A stretch of 64,000 nucleotides of DNA. It comes from a virus. The notes beneath the pieces are model-generated. The model did not search any database, was not told the DNA's origin, and saw nothing but the letters and a program-made list of their open reading frames with translations. Below are positions 1 through 62,275 of the stretch, one piece after another; position 1 is the first letter of the stretch, and every line of letters starts with the position of its first letter. A program made the translations under genes and the position numbers. The stretch is from positions 44,391 through 108,390 of IMG/VR virus record IMGVR_UViG_3300024521_000001. One strand, written 5' to 3'.

Positions 1-1275
1 TTCTCCAAGTTGGTACATGTCTTTGTCGGTTGGAGATTCATAGGCTTTCTCTATTTCTTTAGGAGTCCTTACTCCAAATTCTCCAGGTAGCTTGAAGTCG
101 AATTTAATGGCAAGTTTCTCTAACGCAGATTGGGCAATGGCTGGTGTTTGAATAACACCAGCGAAGATATTCCCAAGACCCATGGCGATTCCACCTATGG
201 ACTGTTCCACTCTCCCCAATTCCTCGGGGCCAAGGTCTATCTTGGCCATGTCTACTTCTCGTTTACCCCAATCTTTGAAGTCCTTCCATGTGGTCCTCGC
301 AAGTCCTGGAAGTTTACTCATAAGCACCATTGGGTGAGCGGCATCAATCCAATCTATGGCAAGGGGATCTTTCTCTGGTCGCTGCTCAGGAGTAGAAATT
401 TGACGATGGGTATTTAACTGCCCTTCCTTCAGAGCGGCTTGTAGTTCCGGAAAGGGTTTCCCCGCTTTTGCAAAGGCATCAATGGTTCGAGAGATATTCA
501 GATCGCCCTGCCACTTTTCATCCAGCATGGACTGGCGGCTTTTATTATCCATGCCGACATAGTCCTGGTAGTCATCTTCGGCATGGACCGCATCTTCCCA
601 CCTACCGCCTTGAAATTTACTTTCCAGCTGGTACATCCATGTTCCACCATCCTCTGTCTCAAAGGCGTACCGCGCTCCAGGTGTTCCTTCATCTATCACG
701 GGCGGTCTATTGAAGTTGAATCGACCGGGCCGACCTCCCATCACTAGAGGTGGACTGTAGCCTGACGGGAGCTTTGGTGTGACCAACTCCGCTAGATCGG
801 GTTCGGGTTTCACTCCTGAGACCGCTAGATCGGGTTCGACTCCTGGGACCGAAGGTTCCACCAGTTCTGGAACTGGTGGGATGGTTTCCCCAATTTTCTG
901 ATGAGCAGACAGCAACGCAGCAGGGGGAAGTTCCATCTCCTTTGGCTTTTCCTCTGGCGTAGGAGCTATCGTTGCAGCGGGCGCAGCCTGGATCCGTTGA
1001 GCAGCTCCAGTAGGAGCTAGACTCGGAGTCGGAGTCGGAATTGGAGCGGGTGCAGCTGGCATCCGGCCCCACTTGAGATTCCAGATCGCCGCTTTCGTGG
1101 CATCGGGTATGTCGAGAGGATCAAGAACTCCCTGTAGGTTTTTGCCAGTGTAGTTGGTCCTAAAGACATGATCGGATATCTGAGTTTTCGACCCTTCTTC
1201 GATCGCAAGGGGGCGCAGGATTCCCTGGAGTGCATCCCGACGTTTTTGCTTGGGTCCCGTCTGTTCTTCAGCCAT
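1..1275 (-). CDS. Large internal virion protein, N-terminal part (cut by left edge)
   Basis: Open frame of 425 codons with no stop before the window edge, so only the N-terminus is seen. The ATG (CAT at 1273-1275) overlaps the TAA of the gene before it as TAATG. Residues about 75-175 are proline-rich (PIPTPTPSLAPTG, repeated EPDLA segments). The rest is mixed, with helical stretches near residues 320-425. I do not recognise a family. It lies last in the late operon, after the tail genes and two Ala/Gly/Gln-rich proteins. In podoviruses that is where the large ejected core proteins are encoded, so that role is inferred from position only. A lytic or protease domain may lie outside the window. 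Confidence 0.8.
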   Translation of the reverse strand, partial: MAEEQTGPKQKRRDALQGILRPLAIEEGSKTQISDHVFRTNYTGKNLQGVLDPLDIPDATKAAIWNLKWGRMPAAPAPIPTPTPSLAPTGAAQRIQAAPAATIAPTPEEKPKEMELPPAALLSAHQKIGETIPPVPELVEPSVPGVEPDLAVSGVKPEPDLAELVTPKLPSGYSPPLVMGGRPGRFNFNRPPVIDEGTPGARYAFETEDGGTWMYQLESKFQGGRWEDAVHAEDDYQDYVGMDNKSRQSMLDEKWQGDLNISRTIDAFAKAGKPFPELQAALKEGQLNTHRQISTPEQRPEKDPLAIDWIDAAHPMVLMSKLPGLARTTWKDFKDWGKREVDMAKIDLGPEELGRVEQSIGGIAMGLGNIFAGVIQTPAIAQSALEKLAIKFDFKLPGEFGVRTPKEIEKAYESPTDKDMYQLGE

Positions 1276-3026
1276 TATTCATAGGGGTTAGGTTCAACAT
1301 CTTGGAGGTAATCTCTGAGCTTCGTAGCCGCGGCCTCATCCATGAAGTCCAGGAATGGAACGACTTGCTCTGGTCTCACAGCGCCCGTAGAAACCGACAG
1401 CATGACAAGTGCGGGATCTATGACCGCAGTTTCAACGAAGCCCATTCCGGTTGGGCTTGGACCCATTTGTTTAACCATCCAACTCTCCCAATCTATATTC
1501 TTTGGTATGAGCACGGGCTTACCATCGACCTTAACCACACCAGCCTTACCCTCAACGTCCCCACGCTGCGGGAATCTACCCATAACTGTCTGGCCGGTAG
1601 CGGGGTCTTGCATAGGCCTGTGGACCCAGACTTGCGTTGCCTGTTGCCCGCCTGGTCTCTTTTCCCAGGCTGTGATAGACAAGTCCTGCTGAGAGGTTCG
1701 TTGGTTCACAGGAGTGCCCTTGGCCTCAAAGTATTTTTGTTCCGCTCGCTGTGATGGAGTGAGACTTCCTTCCTTGGCAGTTTGCAACCACACATCGTAG
1801 GCTTGTTTAGCCTGTCTCAGTGCGGGGGGCCAATCCTTGATAGGTCGCGTCAGATCGAATCCTGTCCGTTGCGACTTATCGAGTTCTGCTGCAAAGGTTC
1901 GCTGCAATCCATCTCCAGCGTCAGGACGGTGTTGCCTCATTTCAGGGAAAGCAGCCGAGAGAGCATCTTGAAATGCTTGCCTATCCATGAGTCCCATTTC
2001 CACAGAACGTCGGCCAGCATTGTAGTGCAAGCGAAAGTTAGGATCTTGAAGGGCTTCTGTAAAGGTCTCCTGGGCTGGAGTGCTCAGGACGTATTCCAGC
2101 ATATTGTCGACCGCTCCAAATGCCTCTTGAGCCAGACGTTCCTCCTTCTGTTCAGCCGGTTCTTTGAACCGCGCGGATTGCCATGGAGGAATCTCCTCCA
2201 GCAAACCAGGATAAAGGCTCTTGGTTGTCGGAAGTACGCTCGGCGGTGCTGCTGCTGCTGGAGCTGCTGCCTGCTGGTCACCAAACACGGCCTGTCCCGG
2301 GGAAGTGAAGTCTCCGCGTGTTGGAGCTCCCGCCGGTTGCGTTCCCCCTAAAATGCTTTCCGGAGGTCCCGCTGCTCCACCAGCTGGAGGAGGAGCAGCT
2401 GACAATCCCGCCAGTGTTGACGCGGCCGGGGAGACTCCCGCTTGCATGGCTTCCCCGGTAGCGGATCCGACAGGCGGTAGCTGCGCAAAGGTTTGACCGG
2501 CTGTGGGTTCTGCGGGGGCTGATCCAGTCGGAGTCTGTGTTGCTCTGGCAATTCCCCCTTCAGGACTTCCTCCACCCCCCCCCCCCTTTCCCCCGCCAGT
2601 CATAATCGAAGAGACCATTTCTTGAAATTGCTGCCCCTGCTCTCCCCCTGGTCCCCGCCGTGTGAATGGATTAAGGAAACTCAACATTTGCATGGCAGGG
2701 TTCTGTTTCTTACCGCCTTTGGGTTTTTCGTCGATCATCCCAAAGAGTTCGCTCGCACCGGAGTAGAAACGCTCTCCCTCTTGTTCGAGCCTCTGAGCTT
2801 CTGACTCATGCTGCTCCCTGGCCTGAAGGGTGAGACTTTCATCCAAAGAAAGGGTGCGGGCCGTATCGGACTGCTTCTTTCTGGCTTCGGCAAAGTCAAA
2901 CATCGTGGAAACAGTATCGAGCCGACGGTCTTTCTCGGCCGCATTCGATGTTTCTATTTGCCCTCGCTTTTGCGAAAAGCCTTGGATGAACTCGCCAATA
3001 TTGCCTAAAGCACTCATGGCCATCAT
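1275..3026 (-). CDS. Internal virion-like protein with Gly/Pro/Ala low-complexity region
   Basis: 583 residues. Residues about 20-85 are charged and helical (probable coiled coil). Residues about 140-260 are low complexity, rich in Gly, Pro, Ala and Gln, including a glycine tract encoded by a run of 12 G. The C-terminal half is mixed with many Gln and Arg. No catalytic motif or family is recognised. ATG overlaps the TGA of the 3023-3517 gene (ATGA), and its TAA overlaps the next start (TAATG). Size, composition and position beside other Gly/Ala-rich proteins at the end of the late operon suggest a structural, possibly ejected, protein; this is inference. The homopolymer could cause slippage (see findings). 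Confidence 0.8.
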   Translation of the reverse strand: MMAMSALGNIGEFIQGFSQKRGQIETSNAAEKDRRLDTVSTMFDFAEARKKQSDTARTLSLDESLTLQAREQHESEAQRLEQEGERFYSGASELFGMIDEKPKGGKKQNPAMQMLSFLNPFTRRGPGGEQGQQFQEMVSSIMTGGGKGGGGGGSPEGGIARATQTPTGSAPAEPTAGQTFAQLPPVGSATGEAMQAGVSPAASTLAGLSAAPPPAGGAAGPPESILGGTQPAGAPTRGDFTSPGQAVFGDQQAAAPAAAAPPSVLPTTKSLYPGLLEEIPPWQSARFKEPAEQKEERLAQEAFGAVDNMLEYVLSTPAQETFTEALQDPNFRLHYNAGRRSVEMGLMDRQAFQDALSAAFPEMRQHRPDAGDGLQRTFAAELDKSQRTGFDLTRPIKDWPPALRQAKQAYDVWLQTAKEGSLTPSQRAEQKYFEAKGTPVNQRTSQQDLSITAWEKRPGGQQATQVWVHRPMQDPATGQTVMGRFPQRGDVEGKAGVVKVDGKPVLIPKNIDWESWMVKQMGPSPTGMGFVETAVIDPALVMLSVSTGAVRPEQVVPFLDFMDEAAATKLRDYLQDVEPNPYE

Positions 3027-3517
3027 TTACCTCCAAACATAGAACCAAGCCCACCGAACAAACCACCTCTCGATTGCGAAGCGGACAGGTTTCCCAATGC
3101 TTGACCACCCTGCATACCCGTACCCAAAGCCGATATCCCCGCCTGCGTTCCACCAACCCCTAGTGAGGCTAGACGTGCCAGGCTTTCCGAAAACATCTGA
3201 GGCCCGAGGCTACCAATCGTGCCAGCTTCAGCCTTGGCAAGATCCCCGCGGGATTGTTCAAGAGTACCGCCACGAGGCAAACTCCTTTCTATGGACGACC
3301 TGGCTTGACCGAACTGGTTTCGTATTCCCTGGATAGAAGGGGCCAGGGCTTGGGTCGTCGTCTCCGGATCCCCACTCACCAGAGCTCTGTATTTCGCAAT
3401 GGGTATAGTCCGTGCTGGCTCGGTCTGCTCCTCGAGTTTTTCCGACAGGGCCAAGGCCCTCTCAGTGGACTGAGTCAATGCTGACTGAGCTGCCTTTCCT
3501 GCGCTTTTACCGCCCAT
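3023..3517 (-). CDS. Small Ala/Gly/Ser-rich virion protein
   Basis: 164 residues, preceded by a good ribosome site (AAAGGGGG, 7 bases from ATG). The N-terminal half is helical and charged. The C-terminal part (about 100-164) is Gly/Ser/Leu-rich, ending in GGLFGGLGSMFGGK. This composition is common in small core or internal virion proteins encoded just before the large ejected proteins of podoviruses. No enzymatic motif. It overlaps both neighbours, so it is translated with them. Function inferred from position and composition. Confidence 0.75.
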   Translation of the reverse strand: MGGKSAGKAAQSALTQSTERALALSEKLEEQTEPARTIPIAKYRALVSGDPETTTQALAPSIQGIRNQFGQARSSIERSLPRGGTLEQSRGDLAKAEAGTIGSLGPQMFSESLARLASLGVGGTQAGISALGTGMQGGQALGNLSASQSRGGLFGGLGSMFGGK

Positions 3518-4166
3518 TGGTTTCCCCCTTTGCTAAATACTTGGCCTCGGCAATATTAAATTCTTCCTTGGTTTGAACCGCCACGAGTCCATCTACGGTT
3601 TCTCCGTGGTAGGTGGTGAAACCCGGGATCTCGGCTGCATAGTGGAATCCCAGGTTTCTGACATAGCGTTGTGCCAGCTTGTTTGGCTTCGGAGTCAGGC
3701 CGAAAACCAGATCAAACCCTTGACCTGTCGGCATGTTCTGAGCATCGAACTCCTCACCTTTCAATAGGAGCTTCCAAGGAAACCTAAACCACTGAGAGAC
3801 ACAGATCATTCCGAATCTTTGGGTGATCTTCGGATTCCAGAACTTACGAAAGAAGACGAAGGAGCCACAGCCTTTGAGCATGGAGTCAGTATGGTTGATA
3901 TCATTCAGCCAGCCGATTCCGTGATACTGATTGGTTTTCACATCGGTCAAAATGCTCAGAACCGTGTGAGGGTACATGCCCATGAAGTCGATAAACTCCT
4001 CTTTCGGTAGCTCCCGCTCGTGCATGACCTCACGATAGAGACCATCGGCATGCAGATCGTTGTAGATCCTCTCCAGCATGTCTTCCGGAAAGAGGTTCTT
4101 GTTGAAGGCGTACGGATAGACCCCGTATCGCTCCTCCTCAGCTACTTCTTCTTCAACTGCTAGCAT
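3507..4166 (-). CDS. GNAT-like acyltransferase-type phage protein
   Basis: 219 residues. After an acidic N-terminus, the central and C-terminal parts follow the pattern of phage GNAT-like proteins: a strand with GCGSFVFFRKFW, then QGFDLVFGLTPKPNKLAQRY followed by VRNLGFHYAAEIPGF, resembling the acceptor-side C-terminal part of GNAT enzymes (N..A...Y.rlGF). I cannot point to an unambiguous acetyl-CoA P-loop (R/QxxGxG/A), so activity is uncertain. Such genes are frequent near the internal-protein genes of podoviruses. The start is preceded by AAAGG and by an 18-bp palindrome at 4178-4195. This gene begins a separate transcription unit after a 157-base gap. Confidence 0.55.
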   Translation of the reverse strand: MLAVEEEVAEEERYGVYPYAFNKNLFPEDMLERIYNDLHADGLYREVMHERELPKEEFIDFMGMYPHTVLSILTDVKTNQYHGIGWLNDINHTDSMLKGCGSFVFFRKFWNPKITQRFGMICVSQWFRFPWKLLLKGEEFDAQNMPTGQGFDLVFGLTPKPNKLAQRYVRNLGFHYAAEIPGFTTYHGETVDGLVAVQTKEEFNIAEAKYLAKGETNGR

Positions 4167-4177
4167 GTTGACCTTTC

Positions 4178-4195
4178 AGTACAAACGTCTGTACT
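4178..4195. promoter_or_regulatory. Near-palindromic operator-like site (copy 1 of 4)
   Basis: AGTACAAACGTCTGTACT is an almost perfect 18-bp inverted repeat, 12 bases upstream of the leftward start at 4166. On the minus strand it directly follows TATGAG, a possible -10 hexamer, so it would cover the transcription start. Three further copies with the core GTACAGGCGTCTGTAC lie at 20714, 31132 and 46470. Protein binding is inferred. Confidence 0.55.
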
Positions 4196-4323
4196 CATAC
4201 CCCCCCTACCCCGAGGCTTGAAAATTTTTAATTTTTTTTTCTAAAGCGACCACAAGGGCCTCCAGGTTTTTGAACACCTTTTTAATAGGAGCTCAAGTCC
4301 ATTTCAGAATATCCATTTTGTCC
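4196..4323. other. Intergenic gap with AT-rich tract
   Basis: Gap between leftward genes. It holds a G-run, an A/T-rich tract (4221-4245, AAAATTTTTAATTTTTTTT on plus) and a short inverted repeat AGGT-ACCT around 4262-4277. I see no reading frame with a ribosome site and no strong terminator hairpin. Confidence 0.4.
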
Positions 4324-4755
4324 CTATCTCCATTTTAGTCGGCCCTTCAAGTAAAATGCCCCCAAATCCCACACTCTCCTCGCCAGATCGCTGAGTGATA
4401 AGCAGTTGCAGGGATTCTTTTCATTGTCCGGAGGCCAAGCCTTGGCACGATCGTACAGCGTGAATGTATCGGTCTCGGGATCGTAGGCAAACGCCGTCCA
4501 CCCTGGCCCATCCAAGTCGAGGCCCTCTTGTGTCCTACCTGTCACCTCAACAATATTCGGGGGGATCTCAGGTCCGTAACCTGGAACCCTGCGGGACTCT
4601 AGTACGGACATAACAAAAAACCCAATAACAGTTCCGTCTATCTCGATAGGTATATCCGGAACATACTGCGCAAACATTCTGTAGGTGCGCGAATACACCC
4701 TTGCCCTAGGGTTTTCTATTTCAATTCCAGTCTCAAAAGGATCCGAAGTGCTCAT
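4324..4755 (-). CDS. Hypothetical virion-associated protein
   Basis: 143 residues; unrecognised. A Pro/Gly/Tyr-containing middle and a C-terminus with two cysteines (NPCNCLSL) and aromatic residues. ATG overlaps the TGA of the 4752-5192 gene as ATGA. It is the last gene of the operon that starts with the tail genes; the 157-base gap after it suggests the transcription unit ends here. Likely a minor structural or host-contact protein from its company, but nothing in the sequence proves this. Confidence 0.7.
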   Translation of the reverse strand: MSTSDPFETGIEIENPRARVYSRTYRMFAQYVPDIPIEIDGTVIGFFVMSVLESRRVPGYGPEIPPNIVEVTGRTQEGLDLDGPGWTAFAYDPETDTFTLYDRAKAWPPDNEKNPCNCLSLSDLARRVWDLGAFYLKGRLKWR

Positions 4756-5192
4756 AGATACTCCACGAGTTTGGTAAAAAAGCGGTGCTCACAGCCATCC
4801 GTGCCATCGGGTGCCCCCGGGTTCGGGGTAGGTGAGCCACTTCTTTCCACGACAGCAGTAGTCGGACCAGTCAGTTCCAAGCGCCATTGGCTTATTTTTC
4901 CATCATTAATGACCCCCAGATCTCCTACCAAGCCAATAGGTCCCGGAGCTGGTGGAACCGCGAGACTACTGCAGCTGCTCCCTATCGAACCGTCAAAGGG
5001 AAGAACCCCCTGACACCTGAAAAAGCCGGCATTATACGCAGAGTGTTGGTGGTAGGCTCTTGTGACATCCACGGCTGAGATGACAACACCAGGCAGTATA
5101 AGGGTTGTATACGCCGCAGCCGCCGTATTGCCTGGAACAAAGCTGAAAGATATTCGCTGTACGTCTATAGGTAATGTCGTTCCGCCTGCCAT
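4752..5192 (-). CDS. Small structural protein, member of a three-gene family
   Basis: 146 residues from the ATG at 5192 (AAAAGGACAACG upstream), chosen over an upstream GTG/TTG extension that would overlap the neighbour. Contains the segment VVISAVDVTRAYHQH, matched by DLTRAYLQIQG in 6103-6471 and DVTRSWILFTG in 5204-6106, so these three adjacent genes look like diverged copies of one beta-rich fold. C-terminal part rich in Pro/Gly with a WRLELTGPTTAVVER strand. Such proteins sit beside tail-fibre genes in many environmental phages; a tail or receptor-contact role is inferred. Confidence 0.7.
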   Translation of the reverse strand: MAGGTTLPIDVQRISFSFVPGNTAAAAYTTLILPGVVISAVDVTRAYHQHSAYNAGFFRCQGVLPFDGSIGSSCSSLAVPPAPGPIGLVGDLGVINDGKISQWRLELTGPTTAVVERSGSPTPNPGAPDGTDGCEHRFFTKLVEYL

Positions 5193-5203
5193 CGTTGTCC
5201 TTT

Positions 5204-6106
5204 TTATCCAGGTGGTGGAAACCAAATCAGGGACGCATAAACACCTAAACATTGAGCACCACAAGCATTTTGAGCAAGGGTGCGAAAGTTACTTCCATGT
5301 GCATAGTTACTGTATTCAATGACCGTAGCGAAACCACTTGCAGAGTTCGGAGCAGGAATACCTGCGCTCGACCTTACAAGGTTAAGTTGGCCCTGCCACT
5401 GTTCCGGATGGAAGCGAGATGTTGGGGGGGTGCTGAAGGAAGCACCCACCTCTGTGAACTCAAGGCCCCGGAAAATGGGAACGGCGTTAGTAATCCCACT
5501 GGCGATTCCAAGATCTAGGTCCAATCCAGTTGCAGGATCTACAACCCTAGCGCCTGCGGCGGTGTTCCCAAAAATCCCGCTGGTGTTGGGCACTTTTTGA
5601 CTTGAGGTGAAATCATAAGGACCGGGATCAGATGGGCTTGGTGAAGCTGAGCAAACAGGAGGACTGGCGGCCGGGCCCACATCTGCGACTTTCACATCTA
5701 TACTAGAACCTCCTGTGCCTGTGTAAGAGACCACTGTAAAACTAACATCTAGGCTCACTCCGGCAGTGGTCCTGGTTGCTAGAACCTCATCACTGAAACC
5801 GGCAGCAATAGATGTAAAAGCCAGGTGAACGCGCCAGGTGGCGAGGTTCGTGGTGGAGCTGTTCACGAACAGTCCAGTAAAGAGAATCCAACTTCTGGTA
5901 ACGTCGACTGGAGTTGCGAGCACTAAGCTAGCGGTGAGCGAACCAGAGCCTACGACGATCTTACCTCGTTGGACCAAAACTCCAGCTCCGCTAGCAATAG
6001 CGACAAAGGGATCCGGAAAGGAACGAACCCCTGCTGCGGTTCCAGAGGTGTTGAGACCCTGTGAATTAATATCCGGAAAAGTTTGAGCTATGCGTTCTGT
6101 CGTCAT
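5204..6106 (-). CDS. Beta-rich structural protein with the DVTR motif
   Basis: 300 residues, rich in Ser, Thr, Ala, Val and Gly in alternating strand patterns. VDVTRSWILFTGLFV (about residues 68-82) matches the neighbours 4752-5192 and 6103-6471. The C-terminal 100 residues carry several cysteines (NACGAQCLG) and aromatic residues. ATG overlaps the previous TGA. No enzymatic motif. Probably a tail-associated protein from position after the hub and fibre genes; the exact role is unknown. Confidence 0.7.
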   Translation of the reverse strand: MTTERIAQTFPDINSQGLNTSGTAAGVRSFPDPFVAIASGAGVLVQRGKIVVGSGSLTASLVLATPVDVTRSWILFTGLFVNSSTTNLATWRVHLAFTSIAAGFSDEVLATRTTAGVSLDVSFTVVSYTGTGGSSIDVKVADVGPAASPPVCSASPSPSDPGPYDFTSSQKVPNTSGIFGNTAAGARVVDPATGLDLDLGIASGITNAVPIFRGLEFTEVGASFSTPPTSRFHPEQWQGQLNLVRSSAGIPAPNSASGFATVIEYSNYAHGSNFRTLAQNACGAQCLGVYASLIWFPPPG

Positions 6107-6471
6107 AGAAACTCAATCACGGCAATCTTAAGGGTTGCGAAACCCCCGCCGGAAACCTTCACGCTGCTAGTGCTCGCAAACTCCCAACGATTAGTGTGAA
6201 CCAACCCATTTTCGTCACCGCCGGCGCTAGGGATTCCATGCGGTGAACCCTGAATCTGTAGGTAGGCTCTCGTCAGGTCAGCCACGGCGGTAATGGCAAC
6301 CGTCACACTCCCAGCCACCAAAACAGCGGTGATCTCCTGAACCGCAACATCAATGTCAAATCCACCACCAGCCAGAAGCCCAGGGACGCTAGGGAACTGT
6401 TCCAGGTCACTCCCCGCCTTCGGGATACCCGGAAGAGTCTCAGCTTCATCTGTCGGGTCGTGCTGTGTCAT
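6103..6471 (-). CDS. Small structural protein with DLTRAYLQ motif
   Basis: 122 residues. An acidic N-terminus (about 1-35) is followed by a beta-rich domain with ITAVADLTRAYLQIQGSPHG and a C-terminal strand TLKIAVIEFL. Similar in layout to 4752-5192 and to the middle of 5204-6106. ATG overlaps the upstream TGA (ATGA) and its own TGA overlaps the next start. A structural role is inferred from the cluster. Confidence 0.7.
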   Translation of the reverse strand: MTQHDPTDEAETLPGIPKAGSDLEQFPSVPGLLAGGGFDIDVAVQEITAVLVAGSVTVAITAVADLTRAYLQIQGSPHGIPSAGGDENGLVHTNRWEFASTSSVKVSGGGFATLKIAVIEFL

Positions 6472-6833
6472 GCGTTCTCCATCTCGGCACAGCTGACGGT
6501 TATGGAAATGTCACCAAAGCCGCCCGATTGCTTTGCTGCTTCGATGACCCATTCTGATCCTGGCCTGATATGCAATCGCCAGATCTCGGTATTACCCGCT
6601 CGCAACTGTCCAGCTCCTCCTGTGGCCGATCCCCGCCAGAAGTGCTTATTGGCCGTGGCCTCACCTTCTGGCCTGACCTTCAAATCGTATCCAGTGTCAA
6701 TTAAGGAGAAATTACAGACGATGATCGTGATCTGGAGCGCAGTTCTCCCGGCGGTGATCGCGGTGATCTCGGTGAGGACCGTCGTCAATTCCTCTTGCGC
6801 TGGTTCTGGATAAAAAACGTCGCCTACTGCCAT
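6468..6833 (-). CDS. Small beta-rich protein, tandem copy of the next gene
   Basis: 121 residues from the ATG that overlaps the upstream TAA (TAATG at 6831-6835). It is a clear paralogue of 6833-7249: both share LTIIVCNF / ITIIVCNF, a GYDL(R/K)(L/V)(K/R)P segment, KH(L/F)(L/W)RGS, a G-T-E segment and RP.(E/S)EW. The DNA even keeps GAAATTACAGACGATGATCG in both copies (6709 and 7088 regions). The fold looks like a small all-beta module, possibly a fibre-tip or capsid-binding domain; function unknown. Confidence 0.72.
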   Translation of the reverse strand: MAVGDVFYPEPAQEELTTVLTEITAITAGRTALQITIIVCNFSLIDTGYDLKVRPEGEATANKHFWRGSATGGAGQLRAGNTEIWRLHIRPGSEWVIEAAKQSGGFGDISITVSCAEMENA

Positions 6834-7249
6834 TAGGCACACACCTCCGGGTTTCCTGAATTAAAGAGTTGAGAAGTACCGATAGTGGTTGCTACCGAAT
6901 CAGCTGCATCGGCTTCGACTAGCACTTCCCATTCTTCCCTGGGCCTCAGCCCAAACTCCATGAACTCAGTTTGTCCCGCCTGGATCTCCCGAACAAAACC
7001 GGCGGTATTTGAGCCACGCAATAAGTGTTTATCAGCATTTCCAGCCCCGCCTGGTTTCAATCTCAGGTCGTAGCCCACAGGGACGTTAGCGAAATTACAG
7101 ACGATGATCGTAAGCTGAAGACCGCTCTCTCCACCGTCAATTACGCAAGCTACGGTCAGTGCGTCTGGAATGACGAGCTGGCAGATATTCGTGAACTCAA
7201 CAAAGACAGGACCTCCTTCTGCTGCCAGGCTCGGTGGACAAATTCCCAC
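6833..7249 (-). CDS. Small beta-rich protein, tandem copy of the previous gene
   Basis: 138 residues, GTG start overlapping the TAG of 7249-7716 (TAGTG). It is a diverged duplicate of 6468-6833, with the conserved order VCNF, GYDLRLKPGG, DKHLLRGS, GQTEF and LRPREEWEV. The N-terminal 30 residues differ. Tandem duplication of a short all-beta protein directly downstream of a coiled-coil tail protein suggests accessory fibre or base proteins; unproven. Confidence 0.72.
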   Translation of the reverse strand: MGICPPSLAAEGGPVFVEFTNICQLVIPDALTVACVIDGGESGLQLTIIVCNFANVPVGYDLRLKPGGAGNADKHLLRGSNTAGFVREIQAGQTEFMEFGLRPREEWEVLVEADAADSVATTIGTSQLFNSGNPEVCA

Positions 7250-7716
7250 TAGAAAACTCCTGATACCATCGTGTGAATCTCATGAGGGTTGGACCATCTC
7301 CAGGCCCCGCGAGCCTGATTGTTGGTCACCAGCATCCGACTGTTCACGGCCTCTTCCGGTTGTGCAGAGCTTCCGTCGTTGGAAATGTCCATCGTGCGCC
7401 GATCAAAGCCCCGGCCAACATTGAACCGCGCATTGGCTCGGACGTTTAAGGGAGTATTGGGTTGATCTTGCAGCTCCGGAGGCTTAGCCAGGAAGTTGGT
7501 TTCAAGGTAGAGCTTTGTCACTAGATCCTGGTCCTCAGTCGGGTCAGCAGAATTGATGACCTTGTTACCACCAAGGTTGATGCTGTCCTGGTGGACGGTA
7601 CTCCCTCGATTTCCTCCGAGAGCGTCCAGGCGGTCCTGCACATCTCGCAGGACAAAGTTGAGGTATTCCCAATCACCTTCATTGACCTGAAAGTGACCAG
7701 CGGTTTCGTTAGGCAT
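7249..7716 (-). CDS. Tail-associated protein with N-terminal helix
   Basis: 155 residues with a strong ribosome site (AAAGGAG, 5 bases before ATG). Residues 1-35 look like a helix or short trimeric coiled coil (EYLNFVLRDVQDRLDAL). Then NLGGNKVINSADPTEDQDLVTKLYLE: GGNKI.n.adPt...Da.tk.Y is a motif common in phage tail-fibre shafts. The C-terminal half is beta-rich with aromatic residues. It follows the hub-like 7728-11426 gene. A fibre or tail-spike attachment role is inferred from this motif. Confidence 0.7.
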   Translation of the reverse strand: MPNETAGHFQVNEGDWEYLNFVLRDVQDRLDALGGNRGSTVHQDSINLGGNKVINSADPTEDQDLVTKLYLETNFLAKPPELQDQPNTPLNVRANARFNVGRGFDRRTMDISNDGSSAQPEEAVNSRMLVTNNQARGAWRWSNPHEIHTMVSGVF

Positions 7717-26946: not shown

Positions 26947-27002
26947 GGAGAAGGACTATGCTAGGATGGGTTTTCCTATTACCCCATCTGGAGTCCTTCT
27001 CC
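26947..27002 (-). terminator. Nested hairpin with U-rich tail on the minus strand
   Basis: An 11-bp outer stem (GGAGAAGGACT with AGTCCTTCTCC) encloses a 6-bp inner stem (GATGGG with CCCATC). On the minus strand it is followed by AGATTAAATATTTTT, as in intrinsic terminators. It stands in the 187-base gap between the 27049-27600 gene and the scaffold. Likely a terminator or attenuator that changes expression between portal-side and capsid genes. Confidence 0.55.
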
Positions 27003-27011
27003 GGATCAACT

Positions 27012-27038
27012 GCCCTGGGGGAACCATTCCCCCGGGGC
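27012..27038. terminator. 12-bp hairpin directly after the 27049-27600 gene
   Basis: GCCCTGGGGGAA and TTCCCCCGGGGC pair fully (one T-G pair) around a CCA loop. On the plus strand it is followed by CTTTTGCGTTTTT, a good U-tract, but no rightward gene precedes it. On the minus strand it comes 10 bases after a stop codon with no U-tract. It may stabilise the leftward mRNA end or block antisense transcription. Confidence 0.5.
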
Positions 27039-27048
27039 TTTTGCGTTT

Positions 27049-27600
27049 TTACACGCTTACAGGAACCTTCGTTCCCATATTTACTGCTGGCATCGCACCC
27101 AACGGCGGTTGTTCGGGTTTAGCTCCACCGACCTGATCTCTAGTGACCTCTTCTCTCATAGTGGCGATAAAATAGCGAATATCAGGGAGAAGTTCTGGAA
27201 AGTCCACCTTCGCCAGTTCCGCTTCCAGGGCAACCGCTGTCTGAATCGCACCACCTGAATCTGGCATAGCATCCAGGGGTGTAGCCGGTACCGCAGTCCC
27301 CGATTCCGATATCTTCTTCGTCAGCTTCGTGATCAGCCCATCGGCGACGGGAGCAAGTCCCGGTTTCATTTGGACCAGTTTCGCGGCGAGCGAAGTAATA
27401 AGATTCAGATTGGGTTCTCCAGGGATTTCCCCCGGAAGTCCTGGGGGTTGCTGCGCTCCTGGCGGTGCTGGAGCTGGACCTGGAGCTGGTTGCGCACCTA
27501 ACTGCGCTCCGGGAGTTTGTTGAGCTGGTCCCGGCGGCTGCATTTGCGCTGCCACATCCAGTGACGGTGGGGGCGGGATGCCTAGATCGGTGTAAGCCAT
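27049..27600 (-). CDS. Pro/Gln/Ala-rich head-region protein
   Basis: 183 residues. Residues 1-62 are almost only Pro, Gln, Ala and Gly (disordered). From about 65 on there is an amphipathic helical domain (LNLITSLAAKLVQMKPG, then IQTAVALEAELAKVD). The C-terminus is again flexible. It lies between portal and scaffold genes. Similar Pro-rich proteins at this place are usually minor head or portal-associated components. No enzyme motif. Confidence 0.6.
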   Translation of the reverse strand: MAYTDLGIPPPPSLDVAAQMQPPGPAQQTPGAQLGAQPAPGPAPAPPGAQQPPGLPGEIPGEPNLNLITSLAAKLVQMKPGLAPVADGLITKLTKKISESGTAVPATPLDAMPDSGGAIQTAVALEAELAKVDFPELLPDIRYFIATMREEVTRDQVGGAKPEQPPLGAMPAVNMGTKVPVSV

Positions 27601-49915: not shown

Positions 49916-49945
49916 TTGACCATGGTCATACGATCATGGTAATAT
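49916..49945 (+). promoter_or_regulatory. Rightward promoter with 20-bp repeated element
   Basis: TTGACC (-35) and TAATAT (-10) with 18 bases between; the spacer is ATGGTCATACGATCATGG, part of the 20-bp element repeated at 54337. CCATG...CATGG makes an inverted repeat over the spacer. A repressor there would block polymerase. First gene starts at 49970. Confidence 0.65.
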
Positions 49946-50229: not shown

Positions 50230-50493
50230 ATGTTTGACGAAAGCCTAGACAAAGAAATCGCAACCAAGGAAGTCTACTCCGTGGGTGGGGTCAGATTGAC
50301 GGTCGGGATTTACCAGTACAACGGAAGCACACCCAAGGTCCAGATCAAAAGAGAACGCAACACCAAGAACGGTTCTTGGAAGTTTGCCAAGCTGGGCAGA
50401 CTGACAGCCGACGAGGTGAGACAGGTCACCACTGGCTTACAGTGGGCAGCCGAAACGCTGGACACAATGGACGGAGAAGGGAGCCAAGTATGA
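50230..50493 (+). CDS. Small hypothetical protein ending EGSQV
   Basis: 87 residues from the ATG at 50230 (AAGGATAGGGAATCC before it), not the upstream ATG. EVYSVGGVRLTVGIYQYNGS, then KVQIKRERNTKNGSWKFAKL: a small beta-rich fold. Ends EGSQV, the stop overlapping the next ATG. Confidence 0.58.
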   Translation: MFDESLDKEIATKEVYSVGGVRLTVGIYQYNGSTPKVQIKRERNTKNGSWKFAKLGRLTADEVRQVTTGLQWAAETLDTMDGEGSQV

Positions 50494-50783
50494 AAAACCA
50501 GTACGCAGTTACACCGGCACAAATGAGGGAGAAGTTAGCTCCCATGTATCGGGATGCAATGGCAGTTCAGGACGCGTGTAATCTTTCGGGAGTCGTTTCC
50601 TCGTTTGCTCGTCACATGCACACGCTATGCGAAATGGGATTCGATACGGACCAGAGGAACCGGCATCCGGTTAGCATTCTCTTCTCCAGCAAGATCGCCA
50701 GTCTGACAGGGAGCGAGTCACTGACTGCATTCTCCGAAGCGTACGAACGTGCAACGGAAGTAAATGAAGGGAGCCAAGTATGA
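50490..50783 (+). CDS. Small hypothetical protein ending EGSQV
   Basis: 97 residues from the ATG at 50490 (ATGA overlap). TPAQMREKLAPMYRDAMAVQ and HPVSILFSSKIASLTGS suggest a mostly helical protein. The last codons again spell EGSQV at the coupling box GAAGGGAGCCAAGTATGA. Confidence 0.58.
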   Translation: MKNQYAVTPAQMREKLAPMYRDAMAVQDACNLSGVVSSFARHMHTLCEMGFDTDQRNRHPVSILFSSKIASLTGSESLTAFSEAYERATEVNEGSQV

Positions 50784-51019
50784 AAGCACCAGCAATCCAG
50801 TTTGCCAAGATCCCCAACAATATCATCGGTCATTTGTTCCTTTGGGTTTTACGTCGATGGTTAAACAGTGACCGCTACTCACTCGTGACCAGAGGAAGAA
50901 AACCCAGACGTGTTATCCGCTACTCCTATGACGTGCCAAAGGCGAACGCGCAACAGTTGGGAATCTACATCGTTGACCGATGGGAGAACAAGATGAGGAT
51001 GGAAGGGAGCCGAGTATGA
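50780..51019 (+). CDS. Small basic hypothetical protein ending EGSRV
   Basis: 79 residues. NNIIGHLFLWVLRRWLNSDR includes a short hydrophobic stretch; VTRGRKPRRVIRYSYDVPK is basic. Ends EGSRV at the third copy of the coupling box. Confidence 0.56.
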   Translation: MKAPAIQFAKIPNNIIGHLFLWVLRRWLNSDRYSLVTRGRKPRRVIRYSYDVPKANAQQLGIYIVDRWENKMRMEGSRV

Positions 51020-51441
51020 TCCAAGCGAATTTTGTGAACGATCAACACATCACACCAGACGACAGGGACCACGATATTCTGACCGCTCGTGTCTACCAGT
51101 GGGACAAAAGAGAAGGCGCAAGGGTAGGGGATTATATCGAGTTTGCCGATGGTGTCACACACCGATTCTCACACGATTGGGGTAAGGAGGAGGGGATGGG
51201 AATCCAGACCAGTCCCATCGGAGGTAGCTTCTACTTCGGTGACGGTTACCTGAGTTATTCGGGTGGACTGGAGCCTTGCATCCAACACGATCAACTGGAA
51301 GACACCGGAGAGCAGCGGTTAGGATCGGTCTGGTTCTTCCATCGTGATTACCACACGGCCCACAATGGAATCAATGCGGTGATCCCTTGCAGAGTGTTCA
51401 AGACTTCGGCCAATAGCGACCACTGGAAGGGAGGAGAATGA
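51016..51441 (+). CDS. Hypothetical beta-rich protein
   Basis: 141 residues from ATG 51016. ARVYQWDKREGARVGDYIEF, GVTHRFSHDWG, and SFYFGDGYLSYSGGLEP. Looks like a small all-beta enzyme-like or binding protein, but no catalytic motif is clear. Coupled to 51438-51791. Confidence 0.6.
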   Translation: MIQANFVNDQHITPDDRDHDILTARVYQWDKREGARVGDYIEFADGVTHRFSHDWGKEEGMGIQTSPIGGSFYFGDGYLSYSGGLEPCIQHDQLEDTGEQRLGSVWFFHRDYHTAHNGINAVIPCRVFKTSANSDHWKGGE

Positions 51442-51791: not shown

Positions 51792-51810
51792 CCATAGCGT
51801 GGCAACACCG

Positions 51811-51855
51811 CTTCGTGACTCCGTCGCGGGGGGGTGTGGCTGCACTAAAGCAGTC
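51811..51855 (+). ncRNA. Two-hairpin intergenic RNA element, copy A
   Basis: Hairpin 1 (51811-51831) CTTCGTGAC-TCC-GTCGCGGGG, 9 bp with three U-G pairs. Hairpin 2 (51838-51855) GGCTGC-ACTAAA-GCAGTC. Lies between a stop and the next ribosome site. Copies B and C keep both stems with changed pairs. Confidence 0.6.
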
Positions 51856-51869
51856 AGGAAGGGGATAGG

Positions 51870-52067
51870 ATGAGACAATTAAGCAAACGCGAACAACGTC
51901 AACGTCAGGCTTGGATGAGTCGGTTCGATACTCTGATGACCGAGCGAAAACCAGAGACAGCGGGAAGGCAGGATTGGGACACCGCTCTGTTTTACTACCT
52001 CCAAGGTGTGACACCGCTAGAGGCAGTCGAGTTTATATGCCAACCAAAACCGGAAGGGATCGAATAA
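51870..52067 (+). CDS. Small helical hypothetical protein
   Basis: 65 residues, site GGGGATAGG. QLSKREQRQRQAWMSRFDTL and DTALFYYLQGVTPLEAVEFI. No motif. TAATG overlap with the PAPS-reductase-like gene, so likely expressed together. Confidence 0.58.
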   Translation: MRQLSKREQRQRQAWMSRFDTLMTERKPETAGRQDWDTALFYYLQGVTPLEAVEFICQPKPEGIE

Positions 52068-52900
52068 TGACACCGATAGTCGAAGTGAAGCTATGGAAGT
52101 ATGACGCGATCATGGTCAACACGTCAGGCGGGAAGGATAGCCAGACCGCGTTGAGGGCTGTTGTCCAGTTGGCAAAGCGTCAAGGCTATCCCTTGTCACG
52201 CATCGAGGCAGCACACGCGGATCTTGATAAGGTCGAGTGGGAAGGCTGTCCAGAATTAGCCCGAGAACAAGCAGAGCATTATGGCGTGAGGTTTAGCGTG
52301 GTCAGGCGAAGAACCAAAGACGGTGATGAGAGTACGAATCTTCTGGACTACGTCAGACAGCGAGGAATGTGGCCTAGCAACACGGCACGATACTGCACCA
52401 GTGACTTTAAGAGAACGCCATGCAGCCGAGTGTTGACCGCGCTGGACAGGAAAGTACGCAGGGACAGGAGACACCACACCAAGATCCTGAACGTCTTTGG
52501 GTTCAGAGCGGAGGAATCACCAGCACGGAAGAAGAAGCCAGTCTTTGAGAGGAACAAGACCGCGAGTACCAAGAGCCGCACGGTTTACAACTGGCTACCG
52601 ATTCACAACTGGACGGAGGTCGAAGTCTGGGCAGATATCAAGGCTTCGGGAGTACGACACCATCGAGCGTATGACATTGGAATGCCGAGGCTGTCTTGTT
52701 GCTTTTGCATCTTCGCGCCAAAGGCTGCCTTGGTGATCGCGGGGAAGGATAAGCCAGAGCTACTCCAAGAGTACGTCGATGTGGAAAGGGAGATCGGTCA
52801 CACGTTCAGGGTTAACCTGTCACTGGCCGAAGTTCAAAGAGCAGTACAGGAAGATGAGCAGCCAGACTTAGTCGCGCTAGACGGAGCCTGGAACATGTAG
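52067..52900 (+). CDS. PAPS-reductase-family (DndC/PP-loop) protein
   Basis: 277 residues. PP-loop TSGGKDSQT at 19-27. ARYCTSDFKRTP with a cysteine (Cys110), VFGFRAEESPARKK, and a late RLSCCFCIFAPK cluster are typical of the phosphoadenosine-phosphosulfate reductase family found in phages. In cells such enzymes activate or reduce sulfate; relatives in phage and DNA-modification loci (DndC-like) handle sulfur chemistry on nucleic acids. No Dnd partners are visible, so the substrate is open. Followed by RNA element B. Confidence 0.82.
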   Translation: MTPIVEVKLWKYDAIMVNTSGGKDSQTALRAVVQLAKRQGYPLSRIEAAHADLDKVEWEGCPELAREQAEHYGVRFSVVRRRTKDGDESTNLLDYVRQRGMWPSNTARYCTSDFKRTPCSRVLTALDRKVRRDRRHHTKILNVFGFRAEESPARKKKPVFERNKTASTKSRTVYNWLPIHNWTEVEVWADIKASGVRHHRAYDIGMPRLSCCFCIFAPKAALVIAGKDKPELLQEYVDVEREIGHTFRVNLSLAEVQRAVQEDEQPDLVALDGAWNM

Positions 52901-52934
52901 GGAGGAGGATAACAATGTATCCGTGACGCAATAA

Positions 52935-52997
52935 CGCTCCGTGACTTGTCGCGGGGCGTGGTGGCTGCACGGAGTAGCCAAATGGCGGTAGACCGCC
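52935..52997 (+). ncRNA. Two-hairpin intergenic RNA element, copy B
   Basis: Hairpin 1 (52935-52958) CGCTCCGTGA.../...TCGCGGGGCG, about 10 bp. Hairpin 2 (52963-52979) GGCTGC-ACGGA-GTAGCC. An extra stem GGCGG-TAGA-CCGCC (52984-52997) follows before the ribosome site. Confidence 0.6.
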
Positions 52998-53015
52998 GGA
53001 AAGGATAGGGAAACC

Positions 53016-53219
53016 ATGGGAACATCAACACAGCTTCCCACACTGGACCAAGCGAGGATGGACACCGGCCAACTGGCCGAGGCTGTCTTGTTTCGTCCGG
53101 GTCAAGGCCAGGGAGTACCGTTTTATCGCGGTTACTGGTGTCACGAGTGTGGCTCCAACTTCAGGCCAGCAATCAAGGCGCAGCGAGTCTGCGTGTGTTG
53201 TGCAAGGACCGAAGTCTAG
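53016..53219 (+). CDS. Small zinc-ribbon protein
   Basis: 67 residues, site AAAGGATAGGGAAACC. WCHECGSNFRPAIKAQRVCV then CCARTEV: two CxxC pairs about 17 apart. Compact zinc ribbon; nucleic acid or protein contact likely. Confidence 0.6.
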   Translation: MGTSTQLPTLDQARMDTGQLAEAVLFRPGQGQGVPFYRGYWCHECGSNFRPAIKAQRVCVCCARTEV

Positions 53220-53232
53220 CATGGCAGAACCG

Positions 53233-53280
53233 CTCCCCGCGACTTCGTCGCGGGGGGTGTGTCGGCTGTACTATCAGTCG
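53233..53280 (+). ncRNA. Two-hairpin intergenic RNA element, copy C
   Basis: Hairpin 1 (53233-53257) CTCCCCGCGAC-TTC-GTCGCGGGGGG, 11 bp. Hairpin 2 (53263-53280) CGGCTG-TACTAT-CAGTCG. Where copies A and B have U-G pairs, this copy has C-G pairs, so the stems are conserved over the sequence. Confidence 0.62.
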
Positions 53281-53299
53281 GGAAAGAAAGGATAGGGAA

Positions 53300-53626
53300 A
53301 TGATTCACTACCAAAGAAAGTACCAAGTAAAGAAGTACCTCACCGTTGACGAGTTGACGGAGGCTCTGATTGAACGCACATGGACGGTGTCCAGTGGCTT
53401 CGAGTTGGAGGGTCTACTGTTTTTCAATGACGCGTTCAGTGAAGACGGAGCGCAGGAGTACGCAGTCTACCGCGACGGCCAGCAGATCGAGAGCATTACA
53501 TTCAGTTGGTGCAACTACGACAGAGCCAAGGAGATCATCTTGGAACTGGTCGAAGGTACGCTCGATACTGCTGATATGTTTACCGGCAGGATTCAACCAC
53601 AGTTCACCATAGTGGGGAGCCTGTAA
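53300..53626 (+). CDS. Hypothetical protein before RadC-like gene
   Basis: 108 residues from the ATG at 53300 (AAAGGATAGGGAA). YLTVDELTEALIERTWTVSS, then YAVYRDGQQIESITFSWCNY: alpha/beta, single domain. Its TAA overlaps the RadC-like start (TAATG). Confidence 0.58.
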   Translation: MIHYQRKYQVKKYLTVDELTEALIERTWTVSSGFELEGLLFFNDAFSEDGAQEYAVYRDGQQIESITFSWCNYDRAKEIILELVEGTLDTADMFTGRIQPQFTIVGSL

Positions 53627-54090
53627 TGACGAAGGGGAAAGCCTACTCAATCAAGGAAGTGTTTCTCACCGTCAGGGATAAGCCAGTGGTTCCCGTCGTC
53701 TTGGGGAAGTTCAAGGCAAAGGTGGTCAATAGTCAGGAAGTCTTTAGAGCATTTGTCTCCCTGAATGAGCGGGACGTTGAGCAGTTCATAGCTCTCCACC
53801 TGGATACGGGTAACTCTGTACGCTCGATTCATGTGGTGTCCAGTGGCATTGTCAATGCTGCCTTGGTTCATTGTCGGGAAGTATTCCGCGCGGCAATCGT
53901 CAACGGAGCCACTAAGATCATCGTGCTACACAATCACCCGAGCGGATCCCCATCACCGAGCGAAGAAGACGTGAGCATCACGGAGAAGCTCGTAAAGGCG
54001 GGAAAGATCATCGGTATCCCTGTGCTGGATCACATCATAGTGGGTGGTTCAACCTACTACAGTTTTGCTGACAAAGGGAGGATGGGATAG
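53626..54090 (+). CDS. RadC-like JAB/MPN domain protein
   Basis: 154 residues. JAB metal site IIVLHNHPSGSPSPSEED at 98-115 (His102, His104, Asp115) and DHIIVGG near 135, the classical RadC family signatures. Only the JAB domain is present; the helix-hairpin-helix N-terminus of cellular RadC is absent. Phage and plasmid forms are often anti-defence or DNA-transfer genes of unclear function. TAGTG overlap with the next start. Confidence 0.85.
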   Translation: MTKGKAYSIKEVFLTVRDKPVVPVVLGKFKAKVVNSQEVFRAFVSLNERDVEQFIALHLDTGNSVRSIHVVSSGIVNAALVHCREVFRAAIVNGATKIIVLHNHPSGSPSPSEEDVSITEKLVKAGKIIGIPVLDHIIVGGSTYYSFADKGRMG

Positions 54091-54336: not shown

Positions 54337-54360
54337 ATGGTCATACGATCATGGTACACT
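54337..54360 (+). promoter_or_regulatory. Second copy of the 20-bp early promoter element
   Basis: ATGGTCATACGATCATGGTA (54337-54356), identical to 49922-49941, with TACACT as a possible -10 (54355-54360). The -35 is weaker here (GTGTGT). Drives the 54384 gene, presumably under the same regulator. Confidence 0.6.
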
Positions 54361-55462: not shown

Positions 55463-56089
55463 ATGAGCTTCAGCGAGTGGCGGTATCTATTCCCCCCCCG
55501 GCCAGAGTCGGCGGTGACGTGCGACTTGATACGCATGTATCAACGGCGGGGGTGGGTTGGTCAGTTCAAGAAGAACGGGACCTGTGCTGTTATTGGCATC
55601 GGTCCCGAGCAGACCTTCCAGTGGTTCAACAGACACCAAGACACGCTGAAGTGGGAGCCTCCACCAGACACGGTCCAGTTGCTTTGGGAAATGTTCGGAA
55701 GCAAGGCATGGACCGTGTTGATAGGGGAGTTAATCCATTCCAAGGTGAAGGACATTAGGAACCGGCTGTACCTCTTTGATTACGTTGTGTTGGAGGGTCA
55801 CTACGCCCTTGGTTCGACGTTTACGGAGCGTCAGAGCGTGTTGTATGAGCGGGTTGAGCCGTTTATTGCAGCCGAATCGAAGTCACACTACTTGGCTTCG
55901 CGGAATGTCTGGTTAGCCAGGACGATCAAGAAGGAACTTACGAGCGTGTTTCATGCGATCACCAGTCCAGAGGACGAAGGGCTAGTGTTGAAAGATCCAT
56001 GGGGCAAGCTGCGCGATTGCGAGCGGGAGAATACCAACGGCCATTGGCAAGTGAAGGTAAGACACCCGAGAACCAACTTTGCATTTTAG
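55463..56089 (+). CDS. Minimal ATP-dependent ligase-like nucleotidyltransferase domain
   Basis: 208 residues. Ligase motifs in order: I KKNG (Lys36, Asn in place of the usual Asp), GEL (88-90), III RLYLFDYVVLEG (101-112), IIIa TERQ (121-124), IV EGLVLK (172-177), V WQVKVR (195-200). The OB domain and C-terminal extension found in most DNA ligases are missing. It could seal nicks with help or be an RNA-ligase or capping-type enzyme. Follows 54755-55459 with 3 bases between. Confidence 0.72.
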   Translation: MSFSEWRYLFPPRPESAVTCDLIRMYQRRGWVGQFKKNGTCAVIGIGPEQTFQWFNRHQDTLKWEPPPDTVQLLWEMFGSKAWTVLIGELIHSKVKDIRNRLYLFDYVVLEGHYALGSTFTERQSVLYERVEPFIAAESKSHYLASRNVWLARTIKKELTSVFHAITSPEDEGLVLKDPWGKLRDCERENTNGHWQVKVRHPRTNFAF

Positions 56090-61514: not shown

Positions 61515-61694
61515 ATGAAACAGCCAATCAAGATCACGGTCGAGAAATCGGTACTGATTGCAGCGAGACAGAAGGCCATGGGGAAGGAGACTGTAATCAG
61601 CAACATCATTGAGGGGTTCTTGTCCCTGTGGATTGCGGGGAAGCTCGCGGATCCGGAGGAGTTGATGAGGGAAGTGGAGGAGGCCCAGGTATGA
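61515..61694 (+). CDS. Ribbon-helix-helix-like protein
   Basis: 59 residues, site AAAGGAGG. PIKITVEKSVLIAARQKAMG, then KETVISNIIEGFLSLWIAGK: beta strand, helix, turn, helix as in CopG/Arc repressors. Directly upstream of and coupled to the serine recombinase, whose expression it may control. Confidence 0.65.
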   Translation: MKQPIKITVEKSVLIAARQKAMGKETVISNIIEGFLSLWIAGKLADPEELMREVEEAQV

Positions 61695-62275
61695 AACGCG
61701 CTGCGATTTACGCACGGATCTCAACGGTGCGCCAAGACGAAGGCATGCAGTTGGAGGACTTGCGGGAGATGGCGAAACGGCGCAAGTGGGAGGTCGTCGA
61801 GGAGTACGTTGACCGAGGGGTGAGCGGAACCAAGGAGTCCCGAGAGGCTCTGGATCGAATGATGGCAGACGCGAAGCGGGGGAAGTTCGACATTGTCATG
61901 GTGTGGAAGTTTGACCGCTTTGCGCGAAGCCTACACCATCTGGTTTCTGCCTTGAGGGAGTTCAGCGAATTGGGGGTCCAGTTCGTTTCACACCAGGAAG
62001 CCGTGGATACGTCAACACCGATGGGCCGAGCTATGTTCGGGTTAATAGGCATCATGGCCGAATTTGAGCGCGAGCTTATTAACGAACGGGTATTGGCTGG
62101 ACTGGACAGAGCCAGAAGGAACGGGACTCAACTTGGTCGCAGGGAGACACAGTTCGACGAGGCTTGGGCTCTTGTGCTGCGCCACGAAGGGAAATCCTGG
62201 AGGAAGATCGCTGAACTGGTAGGGGTCTCAAAGTCTGTGCTGCACCGAAGGATGAAAGAGAAAGGAGTGATATGA
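61691..62275 (+). CDS. Serine recombinase (resolvase/invertase family)
   Basis: 194 residues from ATG 61691. Catalytic domain with YARIS (Ser11 nucleophile, Arg9), DRGVSGTKESR, VWKFDRFARS (Asp75, Arg76, Arg79), the TSTPMGRAMFGLIGIMAEFE helix with AEFERE, and a C-terminal HTH (SWRKIAELVGVSKSVLHRRM). Size and layout fit small resolvase/invertase, not a large integrase. Could resolve genome dimers or invert a fibre region; no recombination site is identified here. Confidence 0.9.
   Translation: MKRAAIYARISTVRQDEGMQLEDLREMAKRRKWEVVEEYVDRGVSGTKESREALDRMMADAKRGKFDIVMVWKFDRFARSLHHLVSALREFSELGVQFVSHQEAVDTSTPMGRAMFGLIGIMAEFERELINERVLAGLDRARRNGTQLGRRETQFDEAWALVLRHEGKSWRKIAELVGVSKSVLHRRMKEKGVI

What the first reader, a model, noticed from the sequence alone, without database searches (positions are those of the whole stretch)
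51811..53280. Three-copy structured RNA element between early genes
Copies at 51811-51855, 52935-52997 and 53233-53280 each form hairpin 1 (core CGYGAC/GTCGCG with G-rich 3' side) and hairpin 2 (GGCTG/CAGYC type). Several U-G pairs in copies A and B become C-G in copy C, and hairpin 2 tolerates G-U to G-C swaps. Loops and flanks differ. Each copy sits between a stop codon and a GGATAGG ribosome site. I know no matching RNA family.
Basis: partly seen in the sequence, partly recalled or inferred. Interest (0 to 1): 0.78.

Follow-up and report, generated by a model that had tools for sequence, protein, structure and literature searches.

The report
Three-copy phage intercistronic RNA hairpin
An uncultured phage and three close relatives carry three diverged copies of one long RNA hairpin, each wedged between the end of one small gene and the start of the next; it is real and has no match in Rfam, and it most likely marks where the shared message is cut into smaller messages, much like the known hairpins of phage T7.

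Summary
In detail: three related structured RNA copies lie in one rightward gene cluster of a 108-kb IMG/VR phage record, each between a stop codon and a GGATAGG ribosome site. All copies can close into one imperfect hairpin (53-57 nt, 19-22 predicted pairs for the isolated RNAs), because the 5' flank (UAGCRUGGC / UCCGUGACGC) pairs with GCUGYAC beyond hairpin 1. Nine distinct copies from four genomes show seven pairs changed on both sides (0-1 when partners are slid), paired C/G insertions, and stronger folding on the coding strand. The copies lie in three of the four most stable 57-nt regions on that strand. Rfam gave no match. Covariance models found exactly three copies in each of four related phages and nothing convincing elsewhere. 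Best explanation, inferred: an RNase III-type intercistronic processing signal, as at T7's early sites. A ribosome-sensitive two-state switch is the main rival. Structure is well supported; mechanism is untested.

The parts
51795..51847 (+). Copy A, long imperfect hairpin (UAG.GUGGC.ACACC.CUUCGUGAC-UCC-GUCGCGGGG.GGUGU.GCUGC.CUA); its first codon TAG is the second in-frame stop of the upstream gene
51838..51855 (+). Copy A alternative hairpin 2 (GGCUGC-ACUAAA-GCAGUC), mutually exclusive with the foot of the long hairpin
51863..51869 (+). GGATAGG ribosome site of gene 1
51870..52067 (+). gene 1 (65 aa, no Pfam or PHROG match)
52915..52926 (+). four-codon ORF AUG-UAU-CCG-UGA preceded by GGAGGAGGATAACA; its stop lies in the 5' foot of copy B
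52920..52973 (+). Copy B, long imperfect hairpin (UCCGUG..GC....ACGCUCCGUGA-CUUG-UCGCGGGGCGU....GC..CACGGA)
52962..52980 (+). Copy B alternative hairpin 2 (UGGCUGC/GUAGCCA)
52984..52997 (+). extra hairpin present only in copy B (GGCGG-UAGA-CCGCC; UAAA loop in L007)
53003..53009 (+). GGATAGG ribosome site of gene 2
53016..53219 (+). gene 2 (67 aa, weak zinc-ribbon match below the Pfam cut-off)
53217..53273 (+). Copy C, long imperfect hairpin; its first codon TAG is the stop of gene 2
53263..53280 (+). Copy C alternative hairpin 2 (CGGCUG/CAGUCG)
53290..53296 (+). GGATAGG ribosome site of gene 3
53300..53626 (+). gene 3 (108 aa, no Pfam or PHROG match)

Best explanation
A cis-acting structured RNA that works on the + strand transcript. 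In each copy, the stretch between the stop codon of one gene and the ribosome site of the next can fold into one imperfect hairpin of about two helical turns with a 2-4 nt tip and small internal mismatches. The most likely role is that of a processing signal: a double-strand-specific ribonuclease (host RNase III) cuts the polycistronic message at each hairpin, separating the transcript into units for genes 1, 2 and 3 with defined ends just upstream of their ribosome sites. Shown here: existence, three copies per genome in four genomes, RNA-level structure on the + strand, covariation, and intercistronic placement. Inferred: cleavage, the enzyme, and the effect on expression.
For: Seven pairs with changes on both sides, 16 such cells, 0 of 500 shuffles as high for covariation score or percent paired; slid versions have 0-1. 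Foot alone: four such pairs, slid versions none; among 1,827 ten-pair windows of the alignment the foot ranks first and the dozen top windows all lie on the same diagonal. Copy C varies in length by paired C/G insertions. + strand pairing 171 of 189 cells versus 138 on the minus strand, 33 of them G-U; minus-strand folds are weaker by 6 to 13 kcal/mol. Isolated hairpins have 19-22 predicted pairs and -31 to -33 kcal/mol, compared with 20-26 pairs and -21 to -26 kcal/mol for 80-nt stretches around five T7 early RNase III sites (positions from memory) folded the same way. [quoted passage not shown] R1.1 is a 60-nt irregular hairpin between genes 1.0 and 1.1 (PMC6121014). No U-tract terminator was listed at the copies.
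Against: No transcript or cleavage data. Perfect stretches are 9-13 bp and, unlike R1.1, there is no 4/5 internal loop. The 3' arm GUCGCGGGG is invariant in all copies, more sequence conservation than RNase III needs. The conserved competing hairpin 2 is unexplained by processing alone. For the isolated copy C hairpin the predicted minimum uses a shifted foot register. The host is unknown.
Confidence: 0.45

Rival explanations
1. Two-state RNA that senses translation of the upstream gene. A ribosome finishing at the stop codon in or next to the 5' foot covers that strand, so the long hairpin cannot close and GGCUG pairs instead with CAGUC/UAGCC (hairpin 2); without a ribosome the long hairpin forms. 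The states give different stability or translation of the downstream gene.
For: Both competing helices are kept in all copies. Their energies differ by only -3.5 to +2.4 kcal/mol in nine copies. CAGUC is kept while the spacer beside it varies by insertions. In all 12 copies a stop codon lies immediately before or within the foot; where the PAPS-reductase gene intervenes, a four-codon ORF with a good ribosome site ends at the same UGA.
Against: Hairpin 2 has only one pair with changes on both sides, and that column is also explained by the long hairpin. Against shuffled downstream sequence hairpin 2 is only mildly unusual in A and C (p 0.019 and 0.068) and not against genomic segments (0.13 and 0.26); the value for B is inflated by its extra hairpin. 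No conserved sequestration of the ribosome site was seen. Tight gene packing would put stops there anyway.
Confidence: 0.2
2. Binding site for a phage or host RNA-binding protein, or for RNA polymerase (as with HK022 put), controlling the three genes as a regulon.
For: The core arms and GGCUG are nearly invariant beyond what pairing needs. Unrelated small genes share the element. put RNAs are about 70 nt, come in two copies and act in early phage transcripts (PMC9378689).
Against: put elements lie near promoters as two adjacent stem-loops (PMC9378689); here the copies are about 1.8-3.3 kb downstream of the promoter-like site and repeat within one unit. No candidate binding protein identified.
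Confidence: 0.15
3. Hairpin that only stabilises mRNA ends or slows exonucleases, with no specific cut.
For: Strong hairpins directly behind stop codons.
Against: Does not explain the conserved loop-proximal sequence and the conserved competing helix.
Confidence: 0.1
4. A repeated linker that helps gene gain and loss by recombination, or a DNA-level recombination site.
For: In L007 the PAPS-reductase gene directly upstream of copy B is absent and another small ORF sits directly upstream of copy A. The 5' half of B in L007 is A-like, suggesting exchange between copies.
Against: G-U pairs and much weaker minus-strand folding show selection on the RNA strand. The RadC gene difference does not lie beside a copy.
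Confidence: 0.1

Closest known systems
RNase III processing sites of phage T7 early mRNA (R0.3, R0.5, R1, R1.1, R1.3)
   Same: Several hairpins in one phage transcription unit, each between genes, imperfect, about 20 pairs, small tip, just upstream of the next gene (PMC4858673, PMC6121014).
   Different: No sequence match: R2 reported nothing in T7 1-7600 at E up to 1; no 4/5 internal loop; more stable here; an additional conserved competing hairpin; cleavage not shown.
HK022 put RNAs
   Same: About 70 nt, multi-copy, structured, in phage early-type transcripts, two-hairpin reading possible (PMC9378689).
   Different: Not near the promoter; best-supported fold is one long hairpin; three copies in one unit; antitermination untested.
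Intrinsic terminators with GTCGCGG stems (for example Bradyrhizobium, L137)
   Same: Similar core stem CCCCGCGAC/GTCGCGGGG.
   Different: Here no U-tract and a long conserved foot; the copies lie inside a gene cluster.

Membership tests
T7-type RNase III processing site | Irregular hairpin of about two helical turns in an intercistronic region | tested here: met
   19-22 predicted pairs over 53-57 nt, between stop codon and ribosome site
T7-type RNase III processing site | Several related copies along one phage transcript | tested here: met
   three copies, 74-86 bits with R2; same in three relatives. That they share one transcript is inferred from gene order.
T7-type RNase III processing site | Internal loop at the cut site as in R1.1 | tested here: not met
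   mostly 1x1 or small symmetric mismatches; R1.1 has a 4/5 loop (PMC6121014). Not required of every RNase III substrate (own knowledge).
T7-type RNase III processing site | Cleavage by RNase III in cells or in vitro | not testable with these tools
   no RNA data
HK022 put RNA | Located close to an early promoter | tested here: not met
   copies about 1.8-3.3 kb from the promoter-like site at 49916-49945; put sites lie within about 270 nt of the start (PMC9378689)
HK022 put RNA | Two stem-loops binding RNA polymerase | tested here: inconclusive
   two-hairpin state possible but near-isoenergetic with one long hairpin; binding not testable
Intrinsic terminator | G+C-rich stem followed by a U-run | tested here: not met
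   no terminator-like site listed at the copies
Any Rfam 15 family | Covariance model match | tested here: not met
   no match at gathering score; only a chance minus-strand miRNA match, E 4.4, at permissive threshold

The most novel reading that the evidence does not exclude
A reusable two-state RNA module in phage operons in which the ribosome terminating on the upstream gene sits on the hairpin's 5' foot, whose first codon can be the stop codon, and thereby decides between the long hairpin and a competing hairpin, linking expression of each gene to translation of its neighbour; the same module precedes three unrelated genes.
Probability: 0.18. Interest if true: 0.7.

Novelty: new member of a known kind. 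Interest (0 to 1): 0.42.

Why it matters
It adds a small structured RNA family, supported by covariation and without an Rfam match, to phages known only from metagenomes. If processing is right, it shows T7-like cutting of a phage message by an unrelated hairpin sequence in an unrelated phage. If the two-state reading is right, it would be a compact way to couple neighbouring genes that could be tested with a simple reporter.

Tried and rejected
Rfam at gathering and permissive thresholds: nothing. Pattern scans of IMG/VR and of bacterial and archaeal genomes: related phages plus chance core-stem hits; the Bradyrhizobium hits I read are intrinsic terminators. Terminase relatives: 22 contigs, none with a copy at E below 0.03, but all are fragments that may lack the region. 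Early-region proteins reached the same few genomes plus short contigs without copies. Phage (except one 46-base match inside the PAPS-reductase gene, E 0.5) and plasmid DNA collections: no match to the element. Terminator, DNA recombination site and DNA-level palindrome: disfavoured by missing U-tract and by strand asymmetry of pairing. Two literature searches for T7 intercistronic sites and phage RNA motifs gave little.

Full report
What the window is. The window is bases 44391-108390 of a 108,390-base IMG/VR virus record. Terminase, portal and major head protein matches and a late block on the minus strand mark it as a tailed phage. At about 49.9 kb the strand bias flips and small rightward genes follow. 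The three copies lie in this rightward block. 'Early' is inferred, not shown.

The observation. The three copies are real. Model R1 finds A, B and C at 75-83 bits in G000; the next best is 15 bits. Three further IMG/VR contigs (L003, L004, L007) carry the same three copies upstream of the same three genes and no others.

The fold. In nine distinct copies 87.7% of cells pair, seven pairs change on both sides and 16 cells do so; sliding partners by 1-3 columns gives 0-1 such pairs. The foot alone has four such pairs, slid versions none, and it ranks first among 1,827 ten-pair windows in the alignment. Examples: G-C in A and B is A-U in C (columns 6-54); A-U in A and B is G-C in C (12-48); within orthologous B copies U-A in the window is A-U in L007 (1-59). 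Copy C varies in length by matched C and G insertions: +2/+2 in the window and +1/+1 in L003 and L004 relative to L007. Sequences are few and related, so shuffle counts are not probabilities.

Strand. The isolated + strand hairpins fold to -31.4, -31.7 and -33.1 kcal/mol against -18.2, -22.2 and -26.9 for their complements. The copies lie in three of the four most stable 57-nt regions on the + strand. This points to RNA, not DNA. For isolated copy C the predicted minimum has a shifted foot register, with the shared register close in energy.

Hairpin 2. GGCUG pairs with CAGUC (A, C) or UAGCC (B) in 95% of cells, but uses the same bases as the foot. Constrained folding gives near-equal energies for the two states, differences from -3.5 to +2.4 kcal/mol. 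Hairpin 2 is only mildly unusual against shuffled downstream sequence in A and C. I regard it as probable but not proven.

Surroundings. In all 12 copies a stop codon lies immediately before or within the first seven bases of the hairpin. L007 lacks the PAPS-reductase gene that precedes copy B here; its gene 1 then ends at the UGA inside the foot. Where that gene is present, a four-codon ORF with a good ribosome site ends at the same UGA. L007 also has another small ORF directly upstream of copy A and lacks the RadC gene downstream of gene 3. The B copy of L007 has an A-like 5' half, so copies may exchange sequence.

Function. [quoted passage not shown] R1.1 is a 60-nt irregular hairpin between genes 1.0 and 1.1 (PMC6121014). 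Folding 80-nt stretches of the T7 record at the five sites (positions recalled from memory, sequence from NC_001604) gave 20-26 pairs and -21 to -26 kcal/mol; the present hairpins, folded in isolation, have 19-22 pairs and -31 to -33. There is no sequence homology, so this is an argument about how it works, not about descent. I commit to RNase III-type processing at 0.45, with a ribosome-sensitive two-state switch next at 0.2.

Novelty. No Rfam family matches and no copy was found outside this phage group at the sensitivity used. Intercistronic structured RNA in phage operons is a known kind; this is a new member, with an unusual competing helix that may deserve more if probing confirms it.

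Noticed in passing
window 49922-49941 and 54337-54356: Exact 20-base repeat ATGGTCATACGATCATGGTA, the only two in the 108-kb record at up to 3 mismatches and kept in L003, L004 and L007/L068, each just upstream of a gene; the first overlaps a -35/-10-like pair. Probably a promoter or operator pair bracketing the unit that holds copies A-C.
   Followed up: partly
window 50476-50495, 50766-50785, 51002-51021: Repeated gene junction GAAGGGAGCCAAGTATGAAA (the third copy 85% identical), giving successive proteins ending EGSQV or EGSRV.
   Followed up: no
window 52070-52900 and 53626-54090: PAPS-reductase-like and RadC-like genes present here but absent at the same place in L007; the first lies directly upstream of copy B.
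   Followed up: partly
window 26983-27050: Very stable + strand hairpin between late minus-strand genes, followed by CUUUUGCGUUUUU; looks like a terminator for antisense transcription.
   Followed up: partly
window 55463-56089: 208-aa protein whose only matches in the phage collection are 25-28% identical stretches in uncultured phage records of 595-735 kb.
   Followed up: no
window 61628-62275: Serine recombinase (Resolvase domain) gene in the rightward block.
   Followed up: no
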